A model generated the notes under the pieces. That model was not told the DNA's origin, searched no databases, and worked only from the letters and a program-made list of their open reading frames with translations. Position numbers and translations under genes: made by a program. Positions 25,490-44,865 of a DNA stretch of 64,000 nucleotides are shown piece by piece (the first letter of the stretch is position 1; each line of letters begins with the position of its first letter). The stretch comes from Acidobacteriaceae bacterium (GTDB taxonomy: Bacteria > Acidobacteriota > Terriglobia > Terriglobales > Acidobacteriaceae): assembly GCA_003131585.1 (NCBI GenBank), contig PKVW01000010.1:16371-80370 (forward strand), in the 5' to 3' direction.

Positions 25490-28400
25490 ATGCCTTATCG
25501 ATTCCATCAACTCCTGAAAAATGTTGGGAAAGCTTGCGAGAACTCGTCTCCGACAGAATCGGAGGTCGAAAAGCTTTTTCAACAACACGATTTTTTTTTC
25601 GAGCTGGGTTACGAGGGCATTGGAAGAGATATCCTCGCGCAGCGCTCGCGGTCGCAAAAGCGCTACGACGCAGCCCTTTTGGGATTTGGCGGGCGAATCC
25701 GTACCGTAATCGAATTCAAGAAGCCGAACCTTGATAAGCCGCTAGAGAGCTATGCCGACGATCTCCTGGAGAAGTATGTTCGCCCTCACTCCGCGACTGT
25801 TGGCGTTCTCACCGATGGCGTCGACCTGGTTTTGTATTTTAGGGTAAATGGGGACTTCGCGAGGCAGTTTGGCTTTCGCCTGACCGAGGTCACAGAAGCC
25901 GAGGCTCGAAAACTTGAGGACGCCGTTCGCAAGCGCCGGGTTGATCTCGAATCGCTGCAGAGCGTGCTCGAATGGTTGAAAGAAAATCGCCAGGGATCGT
26001 TGCTGATCTCAGACAGCGAGTCGGAGCCAGCCAAGATATTTTTTCAGGTTTTTCAGCTGCGGCCCGAGTCCGTCTTCGGACGCTTAGTGCTTAAGCTCAA
26101 GGAAATCCTGCCGCAGACCATCGATTCGTCCGGATTCACTCGGGGATCCTATGAATTTTGGCTGAAGACTTATGCGCGCGAACTGAAATTGCAGGACACG
26201 CCCCGCAGTTGGCGGGACTTCCTGCTCATGAGCACAGCCGAGGAGATTGCCCGCTTTTCCTTTGCCCTTGAAACCGCCTATACGATCGTGTCTCGCTTAA
26301 TCCTAGCCAAAGCCGCTGACGATCAGCGGTTTCCCGGCGTCCGGTTTTTGCCGCGCCTTCAGGAAAGTTATAGCGAACTTTCAACGCGCAACCGGCTTAA
26401 AGCGGAGAACCACTTGGAGGTCATCGGGCGATCGTTTCAGAGGGCAGGCGAGACGCTCTTCCATTCCATTTTCTCGCAAGACATTTTCGATTGGTGGTTT
26501 GAAACCAAGACGCTGGATAACCGACTCCTCTGCTTAGCCATCGGTGAGGCTGTCCTAACCATCGTGCAGTTTGACTTCGCTGATCTTTCCGGCGACTTGC
26601 TCGGGGAGTTGTACCAACAGTATTTCGACCGAGACACGCGCAAGGCCTTAGGCGAGTTTTACACCCCAAGCGAGGTCATCGAGTTCATCCTGGATGAGTG
26701 TGGCTATAAGGGGCAGCGCGGAGAACGTCTGCTCGATCCTTCTTGCGGTTCGGGCTCTTTCCTGGTGGCTGCGCTAAAGCGCTATCTTGCCAGGCACAAA
26801 GGCCAAGACAAAGAGTCTCTGCTGCGGGATCTGACTGAGGGTCTGCGCTTGGTGGGCTTCGATATTAATCCCTTTGCCGTCTTGATGTCGCAAGTCAACT
26901 ACGCGGCTCTCATTCTGCCGCTGTATGCGGAGGCCGTCTTTCACAACCCCGAATTCCGCATCTTGCGCTTGCCCGTATTTCGCACAGACTCCCTGCGTCT
27001 GGAAGAGAAGGAAGTCGAGCGTAATTCAAAGAAGAAAGACGCGCTGACCATCAACCTGCAATTCGAAGAGCGAACCCTAGACGTCAGTGTCTATTTGCCG
27101 ATCACGGAGTCCAAGAAACGGTTCGTGAAAATGCAGGTCCGCGTGCCTCGCTTCGCTGACGCACGCAAGCAAGGCCTGGTGGGCAACCTCGAGGACTATG
27201 TTGCCGCGCTCAGTTTCGTGTTCCAGGCCGCCCGGGATAAACGGCACAGCTTGGCCACGCTCTTAAAAGGCCGATTTGGAAGCCGGGCCGGCGATCTTGC
27301 AACTTACCTGACCGACGTGTTGGATAGCCTCAACTCCACCGTGGACACCCTGAAAGGAAAATACAACGACGGCCGCTTTCTCAAAACGATTGAGGACTTG
27401 GTCCTTGCTGTCTCGCTCAAGCAGGACATGCAATACGACTACGTAGTCGGCAATCCGCCCTACGTCCGTATTCAGAAGATTCCTGACCATGTGAAGGAGT
27501 ATTGGGAAGGAAGATACGAGTGGGCAGAACGCAACTACGATGTGTACATCCCATTTTTTGAGCGGACTATCCAGGCGGCAGGACAAGAAGGCTGGCTCAC
27601 AGAGGGCGGTCGTCTCGGGTTCATCACTTCTGACCGTTTTCTGAATGCTGACTACGGCGGAAAACTCCGCGAAGAGCTGCCGAAAGGCCTCAAGGTGGAC
27701 TTGCTGATTGACTTTCGCGACACTCGCGTCTTCGAGGGAGCGCTCAACTACCCCGCAATTTTGATTGGGAGGCGGGAAACCGGATCCACTGGTGAGATGG
27801 AGGCGGCTCGGGTATTTTCCAGTGAAACTCCTCTCGCGGAGCTTCTGAAACAGTTCAAGAATCTCCGAAAACAAGTTGGGGACAGTCACGTCCTGCGTAG
27901 TAATGCGGCTGAAGTTTTCAGTTTTCCGCGAAGTCAGCTCAAAGCACAGGGCTGGTGGCTAATGCCGACCGACGAGCGGGAGACATTTGAGCGTCTTCGA
28001 GGCTGTGCAGGTAAGAGCCTGTCCGAGCTGACGGTCAGTGCCAGTGGGGGATTCGCAGGTTATCAGACAAGCGCAGACGCGGTCTTGGTCTTCGACGAAC
28101 TGGAGGATTGTGGACCAATTCTTAAACTCGCGCCCCGTCACGAGCCCAAACACTGTGGTTGCGGGAAAAATCCTGTTGAGATCGAGAAGGAAGCGCTGCG
28201 GCCCTTCCTTTTCGGCAAAGACGTTGGGCGCTGGCTCGTCGATTGGAAGAAAGCATGGGTCATGTTCCCTTATGACATCTATCAGAAGAAGCAAACCCTT
28301 TATGACGAGATTTCGGTGACTAAAGGCTGGAACTTGATTCCTAGCAGAGAGAACATCGGCAAATTCAACTTTGCCCACCCGGACGCGATCACGACCATAG

Positions 28401-29443
28401 AGGAACGATTCCCCAAAGCTTGGAAGTACCTGCGCAACCATGAAACAGTGCTGCGCGCCCGCGAACACGACAAATACGCGAGGGATAGGGCGGAAGGATA
28501 CGGCTGGTATGGAGCAACCTATCCTCGAGGTCTCGATTACTATTTCCGCCCCAAGCTGATGCTGCAACTGCTCTCTCGCTACAACTCGGTCGCTTATGAC
28601 CCCGAGGGCAAATTTGTCTTTCAGGCGGGAGGCAAAGGTGGCGGCGTTTATGGAGTTGTCCCTATCGAAACGGTGAACCACCGCGCCCTGCAGGGCTTCT
28701 TGAGTTCGAAGGTGGCGGACTTTATCGTCAAAGAGATTAGCTCAGTCTACGGTGGGCGCTTCTACTCTTACGCCGATCAGTTCCTCAGAGATCTGCCGAT
28801 CTGCAAGCCTCTGTTGGCAAGCGAGTCGCGCGAGGCAAAGAAGCTCGGCGAATTAGCGGCAGAAATTTCCGACTTGTCCCGTGCAAAACTTCGTCTATTG
28901 TACAAACTGGCAGCCTTCCCTGAGGGGTTCACCGCCGAGCTCTCCAGATACGAACTCGATACGGTCAAGCGACTCTGCAGTAAGCAGCCGCAGTCAGAGA
29001 ATCTGAAGATCATTCCAGAGGATATTCGAGTAGCGGCTGCGCTCTACGGATTCGAGGTGCATTACGGCACCCAAGCTCCATTTGAGTTCGACGTGAGAGA
29101 ACACGCGGAGTGTCTGGCGAAGGCACTACGGAATCATAGGACGCAAAATATAAGCACAAAAACCGTACTCAACTGGCGGCTCCCAGTTACCGTTGCAGGG
29201 GGCAAGAAGCTTTTGGAATTGCTGGCGGGCCTGCAGGCTAATCTAGCCGACCTGAGCAGTAAGGTAACTTCCGCTGAGGAAAAACTGAACGATCTCGTCT
29301 TCGAAATGTACGGATTGGACAAAGAAGAGCGAAAAGTCGTCGATGACTTTCTGGAGAGGTACAGTAGCATTTCAAAGGTGGTCTCAGAAGAATTGGAAGG
29401 CGACGTGCCCGTCAAGCCGGACGAGGTAACGGTGCTGTCTTAA
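25490..29443 (+). CDS. type IIG-like restriction-modification protein (nuclease + N6-adenine methyltransferase + specificity)
   Basis: A 1,317-aa single-chain R-M enzyme. The N-terminus has a PD-(D/E)xK-like nuclease (RYDAALLGFGGRIRTVIEFKKPN, residues ~62-85). A helical connector follows, then the methyltransferase with SAM motif I LLDPSCGSGSFLVAAL (about residue 413) and catalytic motif IV GNPPYVRIQ (about 654). A C-terminal TaqI/Eco57I-like target recognition region follows. It should both cut and methylate its own site, giving phage defence without partner genes. Composition is visibly less G+C-rich than its neighbours and it sits alone, indicating acquisition. It could also be a PglX-like methylase, but no BREX genes are nearby and the N-terminal nuclease argues against that. 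Confidence 0.85.
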   Translation: MPYRFHQLLKNVGKACENSSPTESEVEKLFQQHDFFFELGYEGIGRDILAQRSRSQKRYDAALLGFGGRIRTVIEFKKPNLDKPLESYADDLLEKYVRPHSATVGVLTDGVDLVLYFRVNGDFARQFGFRLTEVTEAEARKLEDAVRKRRVDLESLQSVLEWLKENRQGSLLISDSESEPAKIFFQVFQLRPESVFGRLVLKLKEILPQTIDSSGFTRGSYEFWLKTYARELKLQDTPRSWRDFLLMSTAEEIARFSFALETAYTIVSRLILAKAADDQRFPGVRFLPRLQESYSELSTRNRLKAENHLEVIGRSFQRAGETLFHSIFSQDIFDWWFETKTLDNRLLCLAIGEAVLTIVQFDFADLSGDLLGELYQQYFDRDTRKALGEFYTPSEVIEFILDECGYKGQRGERLLDPSCGSGSFLVAALKRYLARHKGQDKESLLRDLTEGLRLVGFDINPFAVLMSQVNYAALILPLYAEAVFHNPEFRILRLPVFRTDSLRLEEKEVERNSKKKDALTINLQFEERTLDVSVYLPITESKKRFVKMQVRVPRFADARKQGLVGNLEDYVAALSFVFQAARDKRHSLATLLKGRFGSRAGDLATYLTDVLDSLNSTVDTLKGKYNDGRFLKTIEDLVLAVSLKQDMQYDYVVGNPPYVRIQKIPDHVKEYWEGRYEWAERNYDVYIPFFERTIQAAGQEGWLTEGGRLGFITSDRFLNADYGGKLREELPKGLKVDLLIDFRDTRVFEGALNYPAILIGRRETGSTGEMEAARVFSSETPLAELLKQFKNLRKQVGDSHVLRSNAAEVFSFPRSQLKAQGWWLMPTDERETFERLRGCAGKSLSELTVSASGGFAGYQTSADAVLVFDELEDCGPILKLAPRHEPKHCGCGKNPVEIEKEALRPFLFGKDVGRWLVDWKKAWVMFPYDIYQKKQTLYDEISVTKGWNLIPSRENIGKFNFAHPDAITTIEERFPKAWKYLRNHETVLRAREHDKYARDRAEGYGWYGATYPRGLDYYFRPKLMLQLLSRYNSVAYDPEGKFVFQAGGKGGGVYGVVPIETVNHRALQGFLSSKVADFIVKEISSVYGGRFYSYADQFLRDLPICKPLLASESREAKKLGELAAEISDLSRAKLRLLYKLAAFPEGFTAELSRYELDTVKRLCSKQPQSENLKIIPEDIRVAAALYGFEVHYGTQAPFEFDVREHAECLAKALRNHRTQNISTKTVLNWRLPVTVAGGKKLLELLAGLQANLADLSSKVTSAEEKLNDLVFEMYGLDKEERKVVDDFLERYSSISKVVSEELEGDVPVKPDEVTVLS

Positions 29444-31060: not shown

Positions 31061-31271
31061 TTAAAAGGACGAAAATCGGCGGCGTAAGTTGTTGATTTCT
31101 CGTGGGGGCTTTCGGGCGGACCAATGGATACAACCGGTTAGGCTGTGGAAGAAATGTCTACTTTCGAGGACGCCGAATGACTACGAAAGTAGACTTGACA
31201 GTCGTGTTCTGTACTTTATACGGTACGTCGCCGACGATGGCGTAGTCGAAACTGGAGCCTGCCGGCAGCAT

Positions 31272-31320
31272 AGTGCCCACCCTTTCGCACAGAACGCGAA
31301 AGGATGGGGCAGCCTCTTCG
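31272..31320. repeat. family-b REP, degenerate copy at the array end
   Basis: CCTTTCGcacagaaCGCGAAAGG with GGGGCA after it, the same hairpin family as at 32743 and 34268. Together with the RHS remnant beside it, this marks the downstream (minus-strand) end of the cassette array. From greA to here (30931-31271) there is no supported gene. Confidence 0.55.
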
Positions 31321-31348
31321 GGGGCACTGCAAGCGTGGGCCAGCCCCC

Positions 31349-31430
31349 CCAGCCAATCCGAATGCAAAATGTGAGTGTTGCTGCCGGTGGCCCCAAGAAG
31401 CTCGGCCGTGCTGCCGGCGTGATCTCGAAA
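31349..31430 (-). pseudogene. RHS core remnant
   Basis: Translates as GSTAELLGATGSNTHILHSDWLGG, matching the same segment of the RHS core copies at about 32590 and 34105. It begins 20 nt after the stop of the preceding immunity-like gene and is interrupted by the REP, so only a scar of a further cassette remains. Confidence 0.75.
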
Positions 31431-31435
31431 ACCCG

Positions 31436-31663
31436 TCAATGGAGCAATTCCCATAGCCCTGTCGCGATGAAGAGAGTGCAAATCGCGCTTATGCCCAAAA
31501 GAATTCCAAGGTGTGTGCCCTGCCGCAACTCTCCCTTCAGATATTTCGTCCAAGCCGTGACTAAGACCACGCCACCAACGGCGATTGCAAACCATGGATT
31601 TCCTTGGCCTCCGTTGGCAGCACTGGAACCTGGTCCAAGAGTAGTCATCACTTTTTTTGGCAC
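31436..31663 (-). CDS. putative immunity protein A (two-span membrane protein)
   Basis: A 75-aa protein with two hydrophobic segments (PWFAIAVGGVVLVTAWTKYL and LGILLGISAICTLFIATGLW). Its start overlaps the end of the RHS tip A gene by 16 nt, the standard toxin-immunity arrangement. The role is inferred from position and the membrane nature of several neighbours; no family recognised. Confidence 0.6.
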   Translation of the reverse strand: MPKKVMTTLGPGSSAANGGQGNPWFAIAVGGVVLVTAWTKYLKGELRQGTHLGILLGISAICTLFIATGLWELLH

Positions 31664-32736
31664 CCCCCATTCGTGGTGACGTTCGCGTAAATTCCGCCGC
31701 CCGCCGCCCTGCCGAAGAGGGATCCCTGGGCGTAAAGACCGGCCCCTGAGGTAAACCCGACAACACCTGCGGAAGCGGAGGCAATCGGGGTATTTACTCC
31801 GAACCCTCCAAATAGGAGGTCCTCGCTGCCGAGGCTTCCACTTCCATTTGGTACTACTTCTCGTCCGCCGCCGCCCTCCAGACCCTCCCCACCACCGGCC
31901 TCGAATAAGGCCCCTGTGGTTGTTCCGCCTTGGCTATCGAATGTGGTTATTGCTCCCGCGAATGCATGCACCGGACCGCCGCTAACCTCACGGCCAGCGA
32001 AAACAAACGCACCGCCACCGCACACAGTCGGCGCGGCCTTCGCGATTGCGGTGATGTAGAGTTGCGCAGTGGGGTTCAAAGGAACGTCATTAGGAACATA
32101 GATTGGCACGGTTGTGGTTAAGAACTGGAGCAGCGTCCCTTGCTGCCCAGCCACATTCACGACATTGCTGGGAGCGACCTGGACCATCCATGCCCCGTCC
32201 ACCTTTGTGCAGTTGACGTTGTTGTCTCCACCCTGGTCATCGGGAACCGCGTTTCCATTGACGTCTGCGCAGTAGTCCAGTCCGATCGGATCGGTGTAGC
32301 TGAGTGGATCGTTCATCACATACGCATATCTGTTCCAGGACTGCGGATTGCTGGGATCGACAGCCGCCATTCCTGAAGGGTCAGGCGAAATCCACCGCCC
32401 CCGCACCGGGCTGTGCTCGCGGTAGAGGAAGTCGTACAGGCCAGAGAGCGTGTCCTGGCTCTGGCCGGTGAAATTCTGGTCGTTGGAAGTGCCGTCGTAA
32501 CTTTCGCCGTAGGGAGCGTAGGCGGTGTCGTAAACCAGTTGACGATCCCAGTCGGCGGAGATGCGCGCGCTGCCCAGCCAATCCGAATGCAGCAGATGAG
32601 TATTGCTGCCGGTGGCTCCGAGAAGCTCGGCCGTGCTGCCGCCGGGCAGCGGGATGCGGATCGTCATGGCGGCCTGGCCGTTCATCACTCCTAGTTTACC
32701 AATCGGACTGTAGAGAACTCGACCCAAGCGCAGCAT
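31648..32736 (-). CDS. RHS core fragment with C-terminal tip A
   Basis: RHS/YD proteins form a shell around a C-terminal toxin released after the core. Only the 3' part of the core is present: SPIGKLGVMNGQAAMTIRIPLPGG, HSDWLGSARISADWDRQLVYDTAYAPYGESYDG, DFLYREHSPVRGRWISPDPSGM and the core end RYAYVMNDPLSYTDPIGL. The tip of about 190 residues after that motif is Gly/Ala-rich (EAGGGEGLEGGGG; ASAGVVGFTSGAGLYAQGSLFG) and unassigned; a membrane-active toxin would fit its two-span partner. There is no RHS N-terminus, so it is an orphan cassette. A family-b REP lies immediately upstream. Confidence 0.8.
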   Translation of the reverse strand: MLRLGRVLYSPIGKLGVMNGQAAMTIRIPLPGGSTAELLGATGSNTHLLHSDWLGSARISADWDRQLVYDTAYAPYGESYDGTSNDQNFTGQSQDTLSGLYDFLYREHSPVRGRWISPDPSGMAAVDPSNPQSWNRYAYVMNDPLSYTDPIGLDYCADVNGNAVPDDQGGDNNVNCTKVDGAWMVQVAPSNVVNVAGQQGTLLQFLTTTVPIYVPNDVPLNPTAQLYITAIAKAAPTVCGGGAFVFAGREVSGGPVHAFAGAITTFDSQGGTTTGALFEAGGGEGLEGGGGREVVPNGSGSLGSEDLLFGGFGVNTPIASASAGVVGFTSGAGLYAQGSLFGRAAGGGIYANVTTNGGCQKK

Positions 32737-32742
32737 TCCCGA

Positions 32743-32825
32743 CTCCCGCCTTCGCAAAGAACGCGAAGGACGGGGCACCCACTGCGCTGGTAATGCCAGC
32801 GAGATCAAAGCCTGGGCCACCCGCC
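32743..32825. repeat. family-b REP between cassettes A and B
   Basis: Hairpin CCTTCGCaaagaaCGCGAAGG, then GGGGCACCC, and ending CCTGGGCCACCCGCC. Nearly identical to 34268-34356. Confidence 0.8.
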
Positions 32826-32871
32826 CTAAGGGAGAAACTCGTCCCAGACTAACGCGGTCGAAGGAACTCGC

Positions 32872-33186
32872 TCACACCAGCATTTGTAATCCGCAAACTA
32901 CGAAAGTTACTATCGTCAGAATCAGTGCGATAAACGCCATCATTCGATGAGAATCGGCAACTAAGCCAGCAACCGCGAATCCGAGCGAACCGAGTCCGCC
33001 CAGCAGCCAAGCAGTACTGGCCACGCTGACAATTAAGGGAGGAGCATGCGGCTGTTTCGATGTCTGAACAAGAAGCACTCCACCGTATACGATGAACGTC
33101 TCCGCCAAAGATATCGCGAGCGAGATACAGCCGAACTTACGCTTGGACCACCAGTTTGCCGTTTGAACTGTCATTGTCATTGACAT
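32872..33186 (-). CDS. putative immunity protein B (multi-span membrane protein)
   Basis: A 104-aa protein with four hydrophobic segments (FGCISLAISLAETFIVYGGVLLV, IVSVASTAWLLGGLGSLGFAVAGLV, MMAFIALILTIVTFVVCGLQML). ATG 33186 overlaps the end of the tip B frame (33177). Likely protects against tip B; inferred from context. Confidence 0.6.
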   Translation of the reverse strand: MSMTMTVQTANWWSKRKFGCISLAISLAETFIVYGGVLLVQTSKQPHAPPLIVSVASTAWLLGGLGSLGFAVAGLVADSHRMMAFIALILTIVTFVVCGLQMLV

Positions 33187-34260
33187 GCGGTCCTTCCGGC
33201 GGGAACGAGATACATACCCGTGTTCCGATAAATCCAATCCGGAGCCGAGTCATATAACAGATGCAGGGGGATCGAAAGACCACTCAAATCAACGGGGTAG
33301 GGGGCCGGAAAAGGCACTGAGGGATTGAATAGGTCTACGTGACTTTGTATTTGCCCGGTTGTCGGATCGACCGTCACATGAGTCGAGCAGAACGGATTGA
33401 AGTCGCGAAAATTGTCCTTCCCTTTCTCCATGCCGTTATACTTGTTATCAATGCTGCTCGGGCAGACATTAGCTCCCGTTGACATTCATGCAACCGCCTG
33501 TCCCGTTGTTTGCGGGACTGCTATTGGACGCCGGCGAAAGTTTTGGGCACCAAACAACGTCTCCCCCGCCCTGTCGTAAGCATCCAGTGCCTTGATAATC
33601 ACCTCCGGCGGGGACCCACACGCCCGGCGGCGGCGTGTTCAACGTCAGGGTCAGTTGCGAAACGTAATTTGCTTCTTGTTGCTGTAGCGTCAGATTGCCG
33701 GTTAAAACCTGAAACTCCGTCTGCAAACTCGCGTGCACACACGGCGTCGCCACCGGGTAGATGTTACATAACCCAGTACCCGAAAAGCCCGCGTACTGTA
33801 CCTGTAGTCCCGAGGGATCGACCGAATTCATGGGGCCATTGAGGACGTAGGCATAGCGGTTCCAGGACTGCGGATTGCTGGGATCGACAGCCGCCATTCC
33901 TGAAGGGTCGGGCGAAATCCACCGCCCCTGCACCGGGCTGTGCTCGCGGTAGAGGAAGTCGTACAGTCCAGAGAGCGTGTCCGGGCTCTGGCCGGTGAAA
34001 TTCTGGTCGTTGGAGGAGCCGTCGTAATTTTCGCCGTAGGGAGCGTAGGAGGTGTCGTAAACCAGTTGACGATCCCAGTCGGCCGAGATGCGCGCGCTGC
34101 CCAGCCAATCCGAATGCAGCAGATGAGTATTGCTGCCGGTGGCTCCGAGAAGCTCGGCCGTGCTGCCGCCGGGCAGCGGGATGCGGATCGTCATGGCGGC
34201 CTGGCCGTTCATCACTCCTAGTTTACCAATCGGACTGTACAGAATTCGACCCGAGCGCAA
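33177..34260 (-). pseudogene. RHS core fragment with C-terminal tip B, frameshifted
   Basis: The core copy is almost identical to that of cassette A (GKLGVMNGQAAMTIRIPLPGG through RYAYVLNGPMNSVDPSGL). The tip runs TGGCMNVNGS to a TAA near 33469 and continues in another frame as ANVCPSSIDNKYNGMEKG...THVTVDPTTGQIQSHVDLFNP...NTGMYLVPAGRTACQ. Removing one A near 33475 would join the halves (NVNGANVCPSS). Either the toxin is inactivated or the assembly has an error. The His/Asp-rich second half is unassigned. Confidence 0.75.
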
Positions 34261-34267
34261 GCATTCC

Positions 34268-34356
34268 CGACTCCCGCCCTTCGCACAGAACGCGAAGGAC
34301 GGGGCACCCCACTGCGCTGGTAACGCCAGCGAAGATCAAAGCCTGGGCCACCCGCC
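34268..34356. repeat. family-b REP between cassettes B and C
   Basis: CCCTTCGCacagaaCGCGAAGG, GGGGCACCC and CCTGGGCCACCCGCC, as at 32743. With the adjoining RHS core it forms a direct repeat of roughly 480 bp with the same block in cassette A. Confidence 0.8.
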
Positions 34357-34375
34357 GACCCGTTGCGCTGGAACG

Positions 34376-34864
34376 TCAACGCTGGAGCCGGCCAGCAGCA
34401 ATGCCCGCTACCGCACCAAATGCCCCGTACAGGAGAAAGTTCCCCCCGAACATAAAGAGGCCGAACACGGCTTGATCCAGTAGTCCTCTTGGGTCCGCGA
34501 GTCCAACGATCGCAGTGGGCCAAAGGAACAAGATAATCGCGGGGTTGGTGGGTTTGATGATAGCGATGATGGCCGCGACCACGAGCCCTATGCAGCCTGC
34601 CCCTAGGAACCAGCGCACACTTCTCCTGTGAAGGATCGTCATGGTATCGCCTGTTGAAGTTGCCATAAGAGCTGCGAAGCTCGCACGGCGTGGTAGAGAA
34701 TGCGACCGCCAGCGCGTGCGAGACACAAGCAAAGACAGAGTGCCAATGGCAAAAAGCGACAACTTGTCAACATTGTAGTTCCGATATCCCAGAACCATCC
34801 CGAGCACCACACCCGCATCGATGAAGATCAAAATCAACTTCGAAGACACCTTATGAGGCCCCAT
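34376..34864 (-). CDS. putative immunity protein C (multi-span membrane protein)
   Basis: A 162-aa protein with about four spans (LILIFIDAGVVLGMVLGY, FLGAGCIGLVVAAIIAIIK, AIILFLWPTAIVGLADP, AVFGLFMFGGNFLLYGAFGAVAGIA). ATG 34864 is used; the track start runs back through tip C in another frame. It lies 49 nt after tip C, whose Ala/Gly-rich hydrophobic character suggests a pore-forming toxin matched by a membrane-embedded immunity protein. Confidence 0.6.
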   Translation of the reverse strand: MGPHKVSSKLILIFIDAGVVLGMVLGYRNYNVDKLSLFAIGTLSLLVSRTRWRSHSLPRRASFAALMATSTGDTMTILHRRSVRWFLGAGCIGLVVAAIIAIIKPTNPAIILFLWPTAIVGLADPRGLLDQAVFGLFMFGGNFLLYGAFGAVAGIAAGRLQR

Positions 34865-34913
34865 ATCTAAAACCCTCCAAAGTCGTGCAGCGCTCCGCAT
34901 CCCCTTCTCTGTG

Positions 34914-35426
34914 TTAGTCTGCGGGAAGTCCGGGAGAAGGCGGCGGTGGCGGAAGAGGGGGATTAATAAAATTGCGAATCGTATCGTAGGTATCCTTGAG
35001 CCCCCCCGTCGCAAGGCCAACTGCTGTGGAAATCCGGTCCACCACGCCCACCGCTCCCTCTGGCTTTCCAACAAGGCCAGCAACGTCTCCTGCGGTTGTA
35101 GCGACCGCTGCCAGGCTCTGGTTGCCTCCAGTTGCCGCGCCAACTACTGGGCCCTGCGGAGAGCCATAAGCTTCAACAGCTTCGGTTCCCGCTGACACGT
35201 CGGTTTTGGTGGCTGTTCCCACAATTTGTGCCGTCCCTGAAACAAAGGACGCCGAACCGCCGATGCCCCCAACCAACGCGCCCACTACGCCAATCTCTGG
35301 ATTCGTTGCGACAACTGCGACCGCCGCGACCCCTGCGACAACCTTGAGTCCGCCCTTCGCGTATTGGAACACTTTGCTGGGTTCCGTCTTCGGAGGGTCT
35401 TTTTTATTCTGCGGCGGGTGGCCCAC
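34914..35426 (-). CDS. RHS C-terminal tip C, cut off from its core by a REP
   Basis: About 165 residues: linker QNKKDPPKTEPSKVFQYAKGG, then a hydrophobic Ala/Gly/Val-rich domain (LKVVAGVAAVAVVATNPEIGVVGALVGGIGGSA) and a Pro-rich end (NPPLPPPPPSPGLPAD). The linker QNKKDPP is shared with tip D (EPQNKKDPPQPKKGFW), which identifies it as an RHS tip. The first codons lie in the REP/inverted repeat at 35413, so the RHS part is displaced. Possibly pore-forming; inference only. Confidence 0.6.
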   Translation of the reverse strand: MGHPPQNKKDPPKTEPSKVFQYAKGGLKVVAGVAAVAVVATNPEIGVVGALVGGIGGSASFVSGTAQIVGTATKTDVSAGTEAVEAYGSPQGPVVGAATGGNQSLAAVATTAGDVAGLVGKPEGAVGVVDRISTAVGLATGGLKDTYDTIRNFINPPLPPPPPSPGLPAD

Positions 35427-35611
35427 CTTTAGCGGTTTCTGTGTGCATCAATCCCACAGAGGGTGCCCCATCCTTGCGTTTTTTGCAAGGGTGGGCGACG
35501 GTGCTGCCTGTGCTACGGTTTGTCATGCCAAAAAGTGCGGGGATGATCAACCCAATTGCGCAAGCATTCCCGACTCCCGCCCTTCGCAAAGTACGCGAAG
35601 GACGGGGCACC
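35413..35611. repeat. long inverted repeat, left arm (two family-b REPs)
   Basis: A 199-bp arm from GGCGGGTGGCCCACCTTTAG to GACGGGGCACC containing two REP hairpins. Its reverse complement occurs at 35961-36159 with one visible mismatch. A further REP tail (CCTGGGCCACCCGCC) follows to about 35660. Confidence 0.85.
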
Positions 35612-35662
35612 CGCTGGGCTGGTGATGCCAACGAGATCAAAAGCCTGGGCCACCCGCCAGTC

Positions 35663-35950
35663 TTCATCTGGCTTTCCCCGTCCCAGGTATAGGTGTGAGT
35701 GCCATCGCCGAGCGCGTTGCCGCTGGCGTCGTAACTCATGGCCGAGATGTGGTTATTGCCATCGGCGGTGACCGAGCCCATCGTGGTTTCCGTGCAGCCA
35801 TTGTACGTCGGCGACCAGCCCGCCTTCGAGAGCAGATTGCCCCAGGCGTCGTAGCTGAACTGATAGCCCCAGCAAGTGGAAGCGGTAATGGCGGTCGTGC
35901 CTGCCGACGTGATCGCGGGTTGGCCCGGGCTTTTGATCGCTTTGGCCTCA
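35663..35950 (-). pseudogene. RHS YD-repeat core segment between inverted repeats
   Basis: The frame reads YQFSYDAWGNLLSKAGWS, NNHISAMSYDASGNALGDG and HTYTWDGESQMKT, classic YD-repeat core. Both ends run into REP sequence, so it is an isolated segment lacking start, core end and tip. It is presently in the same orientation as the rest of the array. Confidence 0.8.
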
Positions 35951-35960
35951 CCGACACAGA

Positions 35961-36159
35961 GGTGCCCCGTCCTTCGCGTACTTTGCGAAGGGCGGGAGTC
36001 GGGAATGCTTGCGCAATTGGGTTGATCATCCCCGCACTTTTTGGCATGACAAACCGTAGCACAGGCAGCACCGTCGCCCACCCTTGCAAAAAACGCAAGG
36101 ATGGGGCACCCTCTGTGGGATTGATGCACACAGAAACCGCTGAAGGTGGGCCACCCGCC
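35961..36159. repeat. long inverted repeat, right arm
   Basis: Reverse complement of 35413-35611. It ends 22 nt before the stop of immunity gene D. Confidence 0.85.
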
Positions 36160-36181
36160 CCCCCGGTCGAACGACGGAAGA

Positions 36182-36682
36182 TTAGGCACGCACCGCTTCG
36201 GCTTCACGAAAAGCGGGCACTATGACTTCTCGCAGAAACTTCATTCTTCGCTCCACATCGGCTGCGTTTTCTGGTGTCGGGGGTACAGATACCGGGATGA
36301 CGTCCTTGGACGAGCGCCCTTCTTTGGCCAACTGGACCCATTCTGAAATCTCCCCCATGTACCCTTCCAAGGCCTGGGATGGAGTCTTGCAGGAATCCGT
36401 CACTAGGTATGCAGGCGGCACGTCTCCAAAGACAACCCACAGCCACTCGTCCACGTCAGCCCGCGATGATTCGATGCGAAAAAGGAACACCGCGACGATC
36501 CCGCCATAGCCGTCGCCGTAGTAGGCCTCCTGTATCGCTTTGCACCACGGGAAACCCCGAAGGTAGTTTTCGGCCCCGGACGCCATCACTCGCAACAGTC
36601 TGGTGTCCTCGTCGTCTCCGCCGATCATCTGGTCTAAGGAAACAACACCTTTGACCGGTATGCTGTGACCGCTTTTATCCAT
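36182..36682 (-). CDS. putative immunity protein D
   Basis: A 166-aa soluble acidic protein (DQMIGGDDEDTRLLRVMASGAENYLRGFPWCKAIQEAYYGDGYGG, ADVDEWLWVVFGDVPPAYLVTDSCKTPSQALEGYMGEISEWV, GRSSKDVIPVSVPPTPENA). The sequence has the look of a conserved polymorphic-toxin immunity family whose name I cannot give. It is cytoplasmic, matching the predicted nuclease tip D, whose gene ends 104 nt upstream. Confidence 0.7.
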   Translation of the reverse strand: MDKSGHSIPVKGVVSLDQMIGGDDEDTRLLRVMASGAENYLRGFPWCKAIQEAYYGDGYGGIVAVFLFRIESSRADVDEWLWVVFGDVPPAYLVTDSCKTPSQALEGYMGEISEWVQLAKEGRSSKDVIPVSVPPTPENAADVERRMKFLREVIVPAFREAEAVRA

Positions 36683-36786
36683 TTAGCCTTTCTTTGCGGG
36701 CCAGGGAGAACTCGTTAGCATCCACAGAATGCCGAGACTCACGAAGCAAATCAATCTGATTCCAATCGATCATGTCCTTGGTCACG

Positions 36787-37596
36787 TTAGAGCTCGCGGC
36801 CATCGCTGCTGTCGGGACCCTTCCTAGGATTTAATAAGCCGGGCGCTGGCATCGGAACTATTATAAGGATTTCCGTTGCTCCGCTCGCCGCGCCCTCGAT
36901 TGCGGCCCCGGTTGCTTTTACTGCGTCCGTTACGGCCTCCTTTGCACGAGCACCCCATCTAGCAAAATCCCCATTCTCCATGTGTTCAGCCATGTGCTCA
37001 GCGTGTTCCTGAGGTTTGAGATTCTCTGCAGCATTTGTTCCACCGTCCGTCAGCGCCTTGTTGTGGGCCATGTCGTAGAAGCGCCCGCGTACCGCATCGA
37101 AAGGCACCTTTTCGCCGGGATTGGCAGCTTCCCACAACTTGCGCGCTGCTGCAGGACTTATCCGAGCCACTCCGACGGCAAGAGCGCCTGTGAGAGATGC
37201 CCAAAAGCCCTTCTTTGGCTGCGGAGGATCTTTCTTATTTTGCGGTTCGGCCTTTTTAGCCTCAGCTTCGCCTTGCGATGCCGCGGCCTTCGCCTTGTCC
37301 GCCGCGAATCCGAAGAGGGGGTCCAGCCAGAAGTGGCCGTCGGCATCTACCCGGTTCACCGGCGCGTTCTCCACGTACGTGTACAGATTCAGGGTTTGCG
37401 GGTCGCCGAAGCTTGCGTATGGCACCGTCACCGGCTTCGCCGCCCAGTCCGGCGTCATGAATCTGCCGAGACTCGAGGCGTCGTACCTCGCGCCGAAGTT
37501 GTCCAGGCCAGACTCGGAATCCCGTTCTTTGCCGCCGAATTTGTAGTTCTGTGCGACGGTCGGGCAGTCGCAGCGGCTGTCGTATTTTGCGCCAAC
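36787..37596 (-). CDS. RHS core-end fragment with HNH-like nuclease tip D
   Basis: An open frame from a TGA at 37597-37599; it has no start of its own. The core end reads YKFGGKERDSESGLDNFGAR, GRFMTPDWAAKPVTVPYASF and LNLYTYVENAPVNRVDADGH. The tip then has a hydrophobic Ala-rich linker, shared QNKKDPP and a domain DMAHNKALTDGGTNAAENLKPQEHAEHMAEH, whose His/Asn spacing fits the HNH/Endo VII superfamily common in RHS toxins. It would cut DNA or RNA of a target cell. Its RHS part abuts the end of the previous cassette's immunity gene. Confidence 0.75.
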   Translation of the reverse strand, partial: VGAKYDSRCDCPTVAQNYKFGGKERDSESGLDNFGARYDASSLGRFMTPDWAAKPVTVPYASFGDPQTLNLYTYVENAPVNRVDADGHFWLDPLFGFAADKAKAAASQGEAEAKKAEPQNKKDPPQPKKGFWASLTGALAVGVARISPAAARKLWEAANPGEKVPFDAVRGRFYDMAHNKALTDGGTNAAENLKPQEHAEHMAEHMENGDFARWGARAKEAVTDAVKATGAAIEGAASGATEILIIVPMPAPGLLNPRKGPDSSDGREL

Positions 37597-37641
37597 TCAG
37601 GCGAACGCCTGTCGTAGTTGTACCTCCTTCAAATCGTAGGT

Positions 37642-38286
37642 TTATGGCTTGGTAGCCGCTTCAGCGTGAACTTTCGAAATGATTCCAACTTGTTGCATTG
37701 CCGAGAGGACTGAAACATCTGCGCGTTTACCTGAACGTGGGTCCTTCCAGTCCTCGTCCGAAACTAAATACCAGTCGTTGAGTTTCTGAACCGTTGCTGG
37801 CACAGATTTCTCGAAAACACCGATTGCCCTACCGGAAGCAGTTTCCGCGCACCAAAATGCACCTTGCACATAGGCCTGCCTATTTCGGTCATCCGCTCCA
37901 CGCCACCACATTCCATCAGTAAATCCATAAGGCCCTTGCCAGTGCTCAGCATATTTATCTGGCTTTGCACGAGGGGCCTTCTTGAGCGCATCAAGGATCA
38001 AGTCGCCAATCGCCGATTGATCCTTGTTTTCAGTCAAAGCCGCATCCACTATACGGATAACTGTTTCAAGGTCAGTTTGTGCAAAAGCGTTCTTACTCGA
38101 TAGAGCAGTTCTGTAGCAATGAACAAATCCAACTAACGACTGCGTTTTTTGCTCAGTTGAATATCCCTTCCAAGTATTGATACCTGGACTGCCCACGCTT
38201 CCGAATGGCGAACACGAGAGCAGAATGACGAACGTACCAATCGCCAAGCACTGCCGCGCAAAATAATTTCTATTGATTGGGGGCAT
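37642..38286 (-). CDS. putative immunity protein E, predicted lipoprotein
   Basis: A 214-aa protein. ATG 38286 gives a lipoprotein signal (CLAIGTFVILLSCSPFG), so it is exported. The mature part (LVGFVHCYRTALSSKN, GPYGFTDGMWWRGADDRNRQAYVQGAFWC) recalls the Rap1a/Tai-type amidase-immunity fold, but similarity is only suggestive. It overlaps the tip E gene by 17 nt. A periplasmic immunity protein is what a peptidoglycan-cleaving tip would need. Confidence 0.68.
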   Translation of the reverse strand: MPPINRNYFARQCLAIGTFVILLSCSPFGSVGSPGINTWKGYSTEQKTQSLVGFVHCYRTALSSKNAFAQTDLETVIRIVDAALTENKDQSAIGDLILDALKKAPRAKPDKYAEHWQGPYGFTDGMWWRGADDRNRQAYVQGAFWCAETASGRAIGVFEKSVPATVQKLNDWYLVSDEDWKDPRSGKRADVSVLSAMQQVGIISKVHAEAATKP

Positions 38287-39001
38287 AGTAAACAATCTCT
38301 CCATGTGTTGCATTAAAGACGGCACTCTGATGTGCCACCCCGTTAAACAGGCCGACGTTGGCCAGTATGGGACCACTGCTCCCGCGAGGTTGATCTCCTG
38401 AAACGCCTTCAGGACGTACTGAGGCTATATGACCATGGTCGGCGCCATGTTGAGTTGCAAAAACGAGCACTCCTTTGTTCGCTAATGCTTGCGCTTGGTC
38501 CGGCGTCACCGGTTGGTAACCATTCTTTGGGTTCGCGAGATTGTTGATTTGAGTATTTGCCGGGTAGTTGTTCCCCTTTGCGTCTGACAGCACGCCCGTA
38601 GTATTCGCCCCTGTGTGTTGCGCAATATCGCAAGCTGCCTCACTACAGTGCGTAGTCCCAGCAGTCGGTGTATTGGGCGCGTATTTCGAATTTGCCATCG
38701 CCGCATTTTGCGCATCGACCAGGGTTTGAACCTGATTTTGCGCCGTCTTGGCCGCCGCCTGGCCTGCCTTTTGCGCGTTCTGAGAAGCGGCGCATTCTGC
38801 TGACGCGGTGTCGTAGCAGGGGTTGCCGGAGTTGCTCTGGGCGTAGTCGCGGTGGCCGTCGGCATCTACGCGGTTCACCGGCCCATTCTCCACGTAAGTG
38901 TACAGATTCAGGGTTTGCGGGTCGCCGAAGCTTGCATATGGCACCGTCACCGGCTTCGCCGCCCAATCCGGCGTCATGAACCGCCCCAGGCGGGGCTTCA
39001 C
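38270..39001 (-). CDS. RHS core-end fragment with papain/NlpC-like amidase tip E
   Basis: The GTG overlaps the stop of immunity gene F (GTGA), then the same core end as cassette D (GRFMTPDWAAKPVTVPYASF, VENGPVNRVDADGH). The tip has an Ala/Gln coiled segment followed by TTHCSEAACDIAQHTGA with a candidate nucleophile Cys, LANKGVLVFATQHGADHGHIASV with a candidate His, and VFNATHGEIVYYAPNQ. This Cys...GHxA pattern is that of NlpC/P60 or Tae-type cell-wall amidases. Paired with a predicted lipoprotein immunity gene. Confidence 0.75.
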   Translation of the reverse strand: MKPRLGRFMTPDWAAKPVTVPYASFGDPQTLNLYTYVENGPVNRVDADGHRDYAQSNSGNPCYDTASAECAASQNAQKAGQAAAKTAQNQVQTLVDAQNAAMANSKYAPNTPTAGTTHCSEAACDIAQHTGANTTGVLSDAKGNNYPANTQINNLANPKNGYQPVTPDQAQALANKGVLVFATQHGADHGHIASVRPEGVSGDQPRGSSGPILANVGLFNGVAHQSAVFNATHGEIVYYAPNQ

Positions 39002-39399
39002 TGACCGCCTTCAAACCTGGCATCCATGATTCTTGTGATAACAAGCTGGCTTCCCACGACGCCATGCCTTCGCAGGGCGGCGTTGAAGCGTCCTTCAACG
39101 ACGACCCGGAATTTTCGATGCTCGTTCTTGGCACGCATGGCTTGTACTCCATCACTGTAGACGCTGTAAAGGCTTTCTTTGGGCAGAGAGATCGAGTCCG
39201 CCAGGGTGATTGCCGCCCTGCAATCGGGGCTGGTAAGTAAGGTCATGTGATAGCTCGCTTCCACGTATCCGAACACCCTCACTATTTTCCTGTCGTATTC
39301 CCTGCGGCCCGCAACAAGCTCACACGGTGTCAAAGGGCTTGGCATTTCTTGTGCCGAAACCAGGATCGAGATGCATGCGAATAAGAAAATTGTTCTCAT
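38998..39399 (-). CDS. putative immunity protein F, exported
   Basis: A 133-aa protein with signal peptide (IFLFACISILVSAQ) and the blocks CELVAGRREYDRKIVRVFGYVEASYHM, SPDCRAAITLAD and FRVVVEGRFNAALRRHG...LVITRIMDARF. It is a paralogue in layout of the gene at 40030-40425 (C-x-L, DGK.V.V.G.V, C, V.VEG.F.A). Its ATG overlaps the stop of the upstream RHS frame as ATGA. Probably a periplasmic immunity protein; family name unknown. Confidence 0.65.
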   Translation of the reverse strand: MRTIFLFACISILVSAQEMPSPLTPCELVAGRREYDRKIVRVFGYVEASYHMTLLTSPDCRAAITLADSISLPKESLYSVYSDGVQAMRAKNEHRKFRVVVEGRFNAALRRHGVVGSQLVITRIMDARFEGGQ

Positions 39400-40028
39400 G
39401 GCTTGATTCCTTGCGATTCCGCCCACTTTCTCGTCCCCTCGGTGTCTTCCTTAGACCGTTCCCTTACAGCGGCTTCTCGGAGGGTTTGCCTGTCGGCCTC
39501 CTCCCAGCTGGCCGTCGCATTTTCAACCACACCGTGCGAACCCAAGTGATCCGAAAAATAATAATGCACAGCTCCCGCGCTGTCGCGCCTCGCTACCCGC
39601 TGGCCGTTGAAAAAGACGTAGGTATTTTGGACGTTTCCGACCAGATCGGTCTCCGACAGGGAATCGCTGCTGTTGCCCCTCCAGTAGAGGGTTCCGGTAG
39701 CGCCGCTGGCGCAGGTGCCCGGAGTCGTGCCTTCCGTACACTTCTCCACCCGCTGGCCGTCGCCGTCGTAGATATACGAGTATCCGCCGGTGGCGATCAG
39801 CCGATTCTCCGCGTCGTAAACATACGATGCGGGGTTGTTGCTAGTCATGTTTCCTGCCGCATCGTAGTTGAAGCCCGAAAGCTGGTTGTTGGTGCCCGCC
39901 GACACGCTCAACGGCTCGTAGTAAGTCTTGCCCGAGATTCGGGTTCGATTCGTCAGATTGCTCCAAGAATCAATCGTAAACGTCTCGCCCCACTGCGGGC
40001 CGCTGGACGGTCCGCTGTTGATGCGAGA
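39396..40028 (-). pseudogene. RHS YD-repeat fragment F with deleted tip
   Basis: A frame of about 211 codons: WSNLTNRTRISGKTYYEPL, GFNYDAAGNMTSNNPASYVYDAENRLIATGGYSYIYDGDGQRVEK, YVFFNGQRVARRDSAGAVHYYFSDHLGSHGVVENATASW. It then passes directly into a charged end (EEADRQTLREAAVRERSKEDTEGTRKW) and stops at the ATG of gene F. The core end (DPxGL region) and most of a tip are missing, so an internal deletion probably disarmed the toxin while keeping its immunity gene. The 5' side abuts the stop of immunity gene G. Confidence 0.75.
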
Positions 40029-40029
40029 T

Positions 40030-40425
40030 TCAGCGAGTCACGAACCCTGACTTCCGGACGCGGCTGACCTCGATGCGGCTAATACAACCAAGTTGCAAGC
40101 AAACACGGGCCATGAATGTCCCTTCAACTGTAACTAAGAAGGGTCTTGGATCGAGTTTGAGGCGCTTATCTTCAACCCCTGAAATGAAGTCGGGGGGCTG
40201 TGAGTCCCTCGCGTATCTCAGGATCACAACCCTTGTGCATCCTTCACTGCCAATCGCGGTCGAATGTTGGTCTGCACTAACGAAACCGGTCACGATAACA
40301 GTCTTGCCATCATGCTTCTTCGCCGACTTGAGCAGAGTGCAGACGTCCAATGCAGCCCCTTGGCCGCAAGCCGAGATGGCTAAGAGCAAAACCGAGGCAA
40401 AAATCAGAGGAACTGTTCGGGTCAT
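40030..40425 (-). CDS. putative immunity protein G, predicted lipoprotein
   Basis: A 131-aa protein with signal and lipobox (ASVLLLAISAC), then LDVCTLLKSAKKHDGKTVIVTGFVSADQH, EGCTRVVIL and RPFLVTVEGTFMARVCLQLG...RIEVSRVRK. It shares its architecture with protein F. No toxin tip remains upstream; it is an orphan immunity gene at the upstream edge of the array, where sequence changes to a RAYT/REP scar. Confidence 0.62.
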   Translation of the reverse strand: MTRTVPLIFASVLLLAISACGQGAALDVCTLLKSAKKHDGKTVIVTGFVSADQHSTAIGSEGCTRVVILRYARDSQPPDFISGVEDKRLKLDPRPFLVTVEGTFMARVCLQLGCISRIEVSRVRKSGFVTR

Positions 40426-40497
40426 GGATTCTTCCTCTTTTCATATTCTTGTCGAGATAGTTCTACGCTGCCGTGAGCGGCCTCCTTAACAGTGTTT

Positions 40498-40590
40498 TGG
40501 CGGGTGGCCCACCCTTCTGTCCCACTGTTTCTCTCCCGTTCCGGAACTCTGGGTGCCCCGTCCTTGCGTTCTTTGCAAGGGCGGGTACGA
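40498..40590. repeat. family-b REP, left flank of decayed RAYT-2
   Basis: GGCGGGTGGCCCACCC, then GGGTGCCCCGTCCTTGCG and a TTGC...GCAA hairpin. Inverted relative to 41085-41170. Confidence 0.75.
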
Positions 40591-40615
40591 TGCTGCCGGT
40601 ACTATGGGGTCTGCT

Positions 40616-41045
40616 ATGCCCAGCGGCTTGCATCGCAGTTACGGCGCCCATCACCCCGCACTTTATCACTTGTTCGTGCTACCGGCGATTGCCTTTGCTT
40701 GGTTCGGGCGCAGAGCCGGAACCAGTTTCTCTCGATTCTGGACCAGACCCGCCTGCGTCACCGCTTCGTGGTCGTCGGATACGTCGTGATGCCGGAACAC
40801 ATCCACCTTCTATTGACTGAACCCGAGGTCGGAACTCCCTCTACCGTGATGCAAGTGTTGAAGACTTCAACGTATGGACGACGAAGAAGCGCGTGGAAAA
40901 GCTCCGGTATACGCATCGGAATCCGGTGAAACGAGGACTGGTGGAATCGCCCGAGCAATGGCGTTGAAGCAGTTATCGTTTCTATCTTCTGGAAGAGGCC
41001 GGGCCGGTAAGGGTGAATGAGGGATGGCCGCGATTTCGTTCCGGG
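40616..41045 (+). pseudogene. decayed REP-associated tyrosine transposase (RAYT-2)
   Basis: A transposase of the same superfamily as 1282-1755 but another subgroup, broken into three frames: MPSGLHRSYGAHHP, then HFITCSCYRRLPLLGS, then FVVVGYVVMPEHIHLLLTEPEVGTPSTVMQVLK with the HUH histidines, then after a deletion KLRYTHRNPVKRGLVESPEQW with an internal stop. Frameshifts lie near 40660 and 40710 and a deletion near 40870. Flanked by inverted family-b REPs, it is the probable past mobiliser of the REPs scattered through the RHS array. Confidence 0.82.
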
Positions 41046-41084
41046 ATCGTGCGGCGTAGCTTCGCAGCTGCAGGCGCTCGTGAT

Positions 41085-41170
41085 ACCCGTCCTTCGCAAA
41101 GTGCGCGAAGGACGGGGCATCCACTGTGTTGCTGACGCCAGCGAGATCAAAAGCCTGGGCCACCCGCTCG
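41085..41170. repeat. family-b REP, right flank of decayed RAYT-2
   Basis: CCTTCGCaaagtgCGCGAAGG, GGGGCATCC, and CCTGGGCCACCCGC. From here to 41371 I see no gene. Confidence 0.75.
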
Positions 41171-44066: not shown

Positions 44067-44603
44067 TCAGGCCTGGAATTCGGAGGCTTCGGGAAAGCGG
44101 AGTTTGCACTTGGCGAGGGCCAGGGCGAGGAGTTCCTCGATCTTGGTCTCTTCGCAGTTGCGGGACATGGCGAGTTCGCTGACGAGGAGGTAGCGGGCGC
44201 GTTCGAGCATCTTCTTTTCGCGAAAGGAAAGGGGCTTGGCCTGGTGAAGGGCGATCAGGCTCTTGAGGACTCCGGCGACCTCGAACAGAGAGCCGGTGCG
44301 CATGCGATCGGAATTTTCCTTGAAGCGGTCTTTCCAGTCGGCGGTGCTGAGGTCTTCGGCGATGGAGAGAAAGTCCAGGATTTTCTGCACCTCGCCGTTG
44401 CGAACGACGCGGCGAATGCCGACGCTGCCGACGTTGTTGCAAGGCACCATGACCTTGAGACTGCTCGACTTGATGGTGAGGAGATAGAACTTTTCCACCG
44501 TGGCGCCGGTGGAGCGGCTGCTAATTTGTTCGATGACCCCCACGCCGTGGTTGGGGTAGACGACCTTGTCGCCGATGTGGAAATTCAGATCAGCACCACT
44601 CAT
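44067..44603 (-). CDS. carD: CarD-family transcriptional regulator
   Basis: A 178-aa protein. The N-terminal Tudor-like RNA polymerase interaction domain (FHIGDKVVYPNHGVGVIEQISSR, EKFYLLTIKSSSLKVMVPCNNVGSVGIRRVV) is followed by the helical DNA-binding domain with the conserved KDRFKENSDRMRTGSLFEVAGVLKSLIALHQAKPLSFREKKMLERARYLLVSELA. It stabilises the open promoter complex, in Acidobacteria presumably at housekeeping promoters. ATG 44603 is used; the track start adds 68 non-homologous residues. Confidence 0.93.
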   Translation of the reverse strand: MSGADLNFHIGDKVVYPNHGVGVIEQISSRSTGATVEKFYLLTIKSSSLKVMVPCNNVGSVGIRRVVRNGEVQKILDFLSIAEDLSTADWKDRFKENSDRMRTGSLFEVAGVLKSLIALHQAKPLSFREKKMLERARYLLVSELAMSRNCEETKIEELLALALAKCKLRFPEASEFQA

Positions 44604-44865
44604 AAAAGGCACCCGGGAAGGAGTAATAGGGTCTAGTGGGGGAAAAGCGTTGTCTTTACTATAAACAGAGTATCCCGAAATGGGCCGAAAAGCAAGGATT
44701 GGTGCGGGGTTGGGGCATGTGGTGCGGTTCGGGAAAGTGGCGTTCGGCGATGCGAGATGGCAGGTGTGAGGTTGTAAGTCACTGTGCTTAGGCGGGTTAC
44801 ACGTCAAGCCCAGACTAGTTGTTGCCTAACGAGGGAAGCCAGGGAGGGCAGCGCATATAATCGCG

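What the first reader, a model, noticed from the sequence alone, without database searches (positions are those of the whole stretch)
31170..40425. Tandem array of orphan RHS C-terminal toxin/immunity cassettes
Seen: on the minus strand, RHS core fragments, different tips and small genes alternate. RHS pieces begin within a few bases of the preceding immunity-like gene's stop (at 39001, 40028 and 31430, and 45 nt after at 37596). Two nearly identical RHS core blocks (~480 bp with REP, near 32.3-32.8 and 33.85-34.35 kb), a shared core end in cassettes D and E, and a shared linker QNKKDPP in tips C and D mark the homologous junctions. No full-length RHS is present. Known: orphan rhs-CT/immunity modules in Enterobacteria serve as a reservoir for tip exchange. 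Inference: this locus is such a reservoir, with at least seven immunity genes.
Basis: partly seen in the sequence, partly recalled or inferred. Interest (0 to 1): 0.85.

Follow-up and report, generated by a model that had tools for sequence, protein, structure and literature searches.

The report
Orphan toxin-immunity cassette array, Acidobacteriota
A soil acidobacterium carries a row of cut-off toxin ends, most followed by a small gene that probably neutralises it; this arrangement is known from other bacteria, but here the parent gene is missing and repeat elements lie in or beside several of the joins.

Summary
On the minus strand at 40425-31345 there are seven Rhs fragments, five different tips and seven small genes. 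Homology blocks end sharply at the Rhs core end. The window belongs to an acidobacterial genome whose genus includes Candidatus Sulfotelmatobacter MAGs, not to an enterobacterium. Relatives carry the same architecture. A complete genome of the same family has a full-length rhs with a Sec-type signal followed by five orphan cassettes, one of them homologous to tip E plus its small gene. Tip A resembles the peptidoglycan amidase Tse1 (Tae1). It is paired with a lipoprotein-like gene, with the same start/stop overlap, in three genomes. Pairing in relatives is shown for A, D and E; it is positional only for B and C; imm0 and imm1 are unproven. The 'reservoir' reading is not supported here: no resident rhs shares near-identical DNA with the cores, tip D is frame-broken, one piece has lost its tip, and REP/RAYT repeats sit in or beside several joins. 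Best reading: a relict orphan array whose immunity genes may still protect. New member of a known kind. The clustering of REP elements at rhs loci in this genome is the only unusual part.

The parts
40030..40425 (-). imm0: small secreted/lipoprotein-like gene, distant paralogue of imm1; immunity role unproven
   Evidence: ORF; hydrophobic N-terminus ending in LLAISAC; alignment score 118 to imm1 against shuffle maximum 51; no homologue in 346 other genomes of the order except one weak hit
39487..40028 (-). rhs_up: Rhs YD-repeat/core piece without a tip
   Evidence: RHS_repeat E 5e-5; 81% identical over 178 aa to a 1705-aa rhs frame in a congener
38998..39399 (-). imm1: small secreted-type gene, paralogue of imm0, SD-like AAGGA
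38852..39001 (-). Rhs core end A (ends ...DADGH)
   Evidence: Rhs_assc_core E 2e-7
38270..38851 (-). tip A: predicted papain-like peptidoglycan amidase related to T6SS effector Tse1 (Tae1)
   Evidence: profile of 8 homologues hits Tse1 chains at E 3e-6; conserved HC, GH, N-[IV]-G motifs
37642..38286 (-). immA: predicted lipoprotein immunity gene overlapping the end of tip A by 17 nt
   Evidence: pair and start/stop overlap conserved in L109 and L110; lipobox-like LLSC
37333..37600 (-). Rhs core end B (ends ...DADGH)
   Evidence: TIGR03696 59 bits in own-genome search; 93% DNA identity to core A over 138 nt
36787..37332 (-). tip B (HNH-like motif by eye only), contains linker QNKKDPP
   Evidence: no homologue found, no Pfam/PDB hit
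36182..36682 (-). immB: member of a widespread family, mostly solitary in relatives
   Evidence: 16 homologues 39-78%; dN/dS 0.07-0.09
35915..36159 (-). REP/MITE-like element, copy in inverted orientation
   Evidence: 96% to 35413-35657
35658..35914 (-). Rhs YD-repeat fragment trapped between inverted elements
   Evidence: 71% aa identity to a 1640-aa rhs frame in L049, 63% to a resident rhs (L034)
35413..35657 (+). REP/MITE-like element, reference copy, terminal inverted repeats GGCGGGTGGCCCA
34914..35408 (-). tip C: hydrophobic, glycine-rich tip that has lost its core to the element; begins with the NKKDPP part of the linker
   Evidence: weak 33% match inside a congener's Rhs frame
34376..34864 (-). 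immC: membrane protein, SD GGAGG
   Evidence: two predicted TM segments, SD; partial homologue in L126
34257..34354 (-). half REP element joined to core D
33799..34251 (-). Rhs core D
   Evidence: E 2.6e-17 to TIGR03696; 73% to a Ca. Sulfotelmatobacter Rhs
33177..33798 (-). tip D, frame-disrupted at about 33470-33485
   Evidence: second part 79% identical to a congener's tip (L039) that is one open frame with its core
32872..33186 (-). immD: three-TM membrane protein
   Evidence: same pair in L039, L041, L140; dN/dS 0.32-0.41
32728..32825 (-). half REP element joined to core E, same join as in D
32272..32724 (-). Rhs core E
   Evidence: E 1e-17 to TIGR03696
31648..32271 (-). tip E
   Evidence: 45% over residues 16-207 to an orphan tip in the L111 array
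31436..31663 (-). immE: small membrane protein overlapping tip E
   Evidence: 40% homologue directly after the tip E homologue in L111
31345..31430 (-). short core D/E remnant, interrupted by a REP
   Evidence: 89% to the same part of cores D and E
40473..41167 (.). degraded REP-associated transposase (Y1_Tnp) with REP copies, upstream edge of the array
   Evidence: PF01797 E 6e-6

Best explanation
This is a relict array of orphan rhs C-terminal toxin/immunity cassettes in an acidobacterium. Each unit is a stub of Rhs core, a variable tip and a small gene. Units formed when a new core-end/tip/immunity segment recombined into the core of an rhs gene and pushed the old tip and immunity gene downstream (inferred from the homology blocks, not observed). 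The parent full-length gene was not found at this locus or elsewhere in the sequenced genome. Most tips lack convincing start signals and are probably silent. Most small genes keep start codons with SD-like sites and may still give immunity against Sec-exported Rhs toxins of neighbouring strains (inferred). Tip A probably cleaves peptidoglycan like Tse1 and immA probably blocks it outside the inner membrane (inferred from homology and the lipoprotein-like signal). REP elements, probably moved by a RAYT transposase, inserted into or beside the cassettes, and one element-core join was later copied (D and E).
For: Core profiles. Homology blocks with sharp ends at the core end or the REP start. 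The same architecture in congeners and relatives, including a complete genome with a full-length rhs with a signal-like N-terminus and five orphans, one carrying the tip E/immE pair. Pairs A, D and E kept in other genomes, A with the same start/stop overlap. Tse1 similarity of tip A. No resident rhs with near-identical core DNA. Broken or partial units. Amino-acid conservation of immB, tip A, tip D, immD.
Against: No same-species strain was available, so gain, loss or displacement was not seen. immB, immD and immE homologues often stand alone away from rhs. imm0, imm1 and tip B have no informative relatives. The genome is 75 contigs at 96% completeness, so a parent rhs could be missing from the assembly. 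dN/dS values span time before the cassettes became orphans.
Confidence: 0.8

Rival explanations
1. Live reservoir: the array still feeds tips into a resident full-length rhs by homologous recombination.
For: Several tips and small genes are intact frames; full-length plus orphan layouts with shared core DNA exist in relatives, for example 92% over 547 bp in L131.
Against: The resident rhs genes share at most 74% DNA over 70 nt with cores A/B and 72% over 254 nt with the trapped fragment, and nothing detectable with core D/E.
Confidence: 0.1
2. One ordinary rhs gene broken by frameshifts and repeat insertions.
For: Tip D is frame-broken and some pieces are short.
Against: The pieces are repeated copies of the same core end followed by different tips, of two backbones; relatives show the same cassettes as separate units.
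Confidence: 0.03
3. Immunity-only relic: tips are dead weight and the locus is kept only as an immunity island protecting against neighbours (a sub-case of the best explanation).
For: SD-like sites before most small genes, weak or absent before the tips; immB family is mostly solitary and conserved.
Against: Tips A, B and E remain open frames; tip A has saturated synonymous change but low amino-acid change against relatives.
Confidence: 0.35

Closest known systems
Orphan cdiA-CT/cdiI and rhs-CT/rhsI modules of E. coli, Yersinia and Dickeya (Poole et al. 2011, PMC3150448)
   Same: Core stub plus variable tip plus immunity gene, tandem and co-directional; tips without start signals, immunity genes with them; mobile elements disrupting some orphans.
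   Different: No full-length parent found upstream or elsewhere in the genome with matching core; REP/RAYT repeats rather than IS elements; acidobacterial host.
Polymorphic toxin cassette loci (Zhang et al. 2012, PMC3482391)
   Same: Arrays of toxin cassettes with adjacent immunity genes; acidobacteria are listed among hosts.
   Different: These tips and small genes are in no Pfam, NCBIfam or PADLOC family, as far as each was scanned.
Tse1 (Tae1) peptidoglycan amidase with its immunity protein
   Same: Tip A matches the Tse1 chain over its C-terminal two thirds, including the GH motif; the partner small gene is predicted to be exported.
   Different: Carried as an Rhs tip, not as a free T6SS effector; no type VI sheath gene found in the genome.
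REP elements mobilised by RAYT (Y1_Tnp) transposases
   Same: Short palindromic repeats with a degraded Y1_Tnp gene beside the array.
   Different: In this genome the copies cluster at rhs loci: 10 of 21 sites.

Membership tests
Orphan rhs-CT/immunity array | Truncated Rhs core end directly upstream of each tip | tested here: met
   Cores A, B, D and E; not for tip C, where an element replaces it
Orphan rhs-CT/immunity array | Tips differ while cores are homologous, with sharp homology ends | tested here: met
Orphan rhs-CT/immunity array | Small gene after each tip, same pair in relatives | tested here: met
   A, D, E; B and C only by position
Orphan rhs-CT/immunity array | Full-length rhs upstream in the same genome (usual, not required) | tested here: not met
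   None in the window or with matching core elsewhere; met in relatives
Orphan rhs-CT/immunity array | Toxic tip neutralised by its small gene | not testable with these tools
   Needs expression in a laboratory strain
Tse1/Tae1 amidase | Sequence match with catalytic Cys/His motifs | tested here: met
   E 3e-6, GH aligned; the Cys motif is conserved in the family but lies outside the aligned part
Tse1/Tae1 amidase | Papain-like fold | tested here: inconclusive
   Single-sequence model, mean pLDDT 36
T6SS-delivered Rhs effector | Type VI secretion genes in the genome | tested here: not met
   No VipB match; full-length relatives carry Sec-type signal peptides by eye
RAYT/REP | Y1_Tnp domain beside palindromic repeats | tested here: met
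   PF01797 E 6e-6

The most novel reading that the evidence does not exclude
REP elements serve as portable homology that keeps the array recombining after the parent rhs is lost: cassettes D and E share one REP-core join, REP copies lie at four of the five rhs loci of this genome, and one Rhs fragment lies between a 245-nt inverted pair.
Probability: 0.12. Interest if true: 0.6.

Novelty: new member of a known kind. Interest (0 to 1): 0.36.

Why it matters
It extends tandem orphan Rhs cassettes, with comparative evidence, to uncultured soil Acidobacteriota, where they are common (19 of 79 core-bearing loci fetched, mostly acidobacterial, show two or more core ends in tandem). It gives several unnamed toxin/immunity candidate families, including a Tse1-like amidase on an Rhs carrier. 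It also raises a testable question about REP elements as recombination points at toxin loci.

Tried and rejected
Pfam, NCBIfam and PADLOC scans of the tips and small genes gave no usable family. Single-sequence folding of tip A failed (mean pLDDT 36), so no fold search was run. PDB searches with tips B and D gave nothing; the tip D query there spanned the frame break. The HNH idea for tip B rests on a motif seen by eye and is not claimed. Concatenated queries scored only two candidates per genome, so absence there is weak; imm0/imm1 were searched again without the others. A T6SS delivery model was dropped after no VipB was found. An invertible switch for the fragment between inverted elements was considered and not pursued: no second arrangement was seen.

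Full report
What was checked. The window is C50:16371-80370 of a 3.93 Mb, 75-contig genome.

The array. Reading the minus strand from 40425 down: imm0; a YD-repeat piece that has lost its tip; imm1; core A with tip A and immA; core B with tip B and immB; a REP element; a 257-nt Rhs fragment; a second, inverted REP; tip C without core, and immC; half a REP joined to core D, a frame-broken tip D and immD; half a REP joined to core E, tip E and immE; and a last core remnant cut by another REP. Core pieces score up to E 1e-17 against Rhs_assc_core. Cores A/B and D/E belong to different Rhs backbones.

Chance is excluded. D and E share about 490 bp, 92-100% identical per 50-nt block, that begins exactly at the REP start and stops abruptly at the core end, while flanks fall to about 50-60%. 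A and B share 138 bp at 93% that stops at the codons for DADGH. These are the junctions expected of tip displacement.

Relatives. In 41 genomes of the genus group, tandem truncated cores on one strand recur, including full-length plus orphan layouts. A profile of cores found two or more tandem core ends in 19 of 79 fetched named loci, six in one Acidobacteriaceae MAG. The strongest case is L111 in a complete genome of the same family: a full-length rhs, whose N-terminal part carries a signal-like sequence, followed by five truncated cores in tandem. The third carries homologues of tip E (45%) and immE (40%) side by side.

Pairs. Tip A and immA recur together in two other genera, with the immunity start codon inside the last codons of the tip in all three. 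Tip D and immD recur in a congener where core and tip are one open frame, and in two more genomes in part. immB has 16 homologues, fifteen away from rhs, so its link to tip B is positional. immD and immE also have solitary homologues. imm0 and imm1 are distant paralogues of each other with no clear relatives.

What the tips may do. A profile of eight tip A homologues matches Tse1 chains in the PDB at E 3e-6, through the GH motif; a Cys motif is conserved upstream. immA has a lipoprotein-like signal, which suits a target outside the inner membrane. immC, immD and immE are small membrane proteins, which would suit membrane-acting tips; this is inference only. Tip B is unidentified.

Expression signals. 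Most small genes have SD-like sequences before their starts; tips have weak or none, as described for orphan cdiA-CT genes (PMC3150448). immB, tip A, tip D and immD show low amino-acid change relative to synonymous change against relatives, but this covers time before orphaning.

Why not a reservoir here. Homologous exchange needs shared DNA. The resident rhs genes match cores A/B at 65-74% over short stretches and the trapped fragment at 72% over 254 nt; core D/E has no DNA match. The genome is incomplete, so this lowers the claim rather than excluding it.

Repeats. A degraded Y1_Tnp gene with REP copies lies at the upstream edge. Of 21 merged REP sites in the genome, 10 lie within 3 kb of rhs loci. 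A rough binomial gives 3e-14 for all, and 2e-4 when the array contig is left out (3 of 14 sites); sites within the array are not independent. One congener array also has REP copies beside its cores; the others examined do not.

Verdict. A real array of orphan Rhs toxin/immunity cassettes, of a known kind, in a group where the papers found here say little about it, probably a relict with possibly active immunity genes.

Noticed in passing
35413-36159: A 245-nt element and its 96% inverted copy flank a 257-nt Rhs fragment.
   Followed up: partly
40473-41167: Degraded REP-associated transposase (Y1_Tnp) with REP copies.
   Followed up: partly
25490-29443: 1317-aa frame on the plus strand that reads like a restriction-modification protein with a methylase part (NPPY motif), by eye.
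   Followed up: no
44067-44807: CarD-like regulator gene near the array.
   Followed up: no
L112:6300-7010: A tip A-like domain on a short frame without an Rhs core, in another genus.
   Followed up: no
L206:1602-9442: Six truncated Rhs core ends in tandem in an Acidobacteriaceae MAG.
   Followed up: partly
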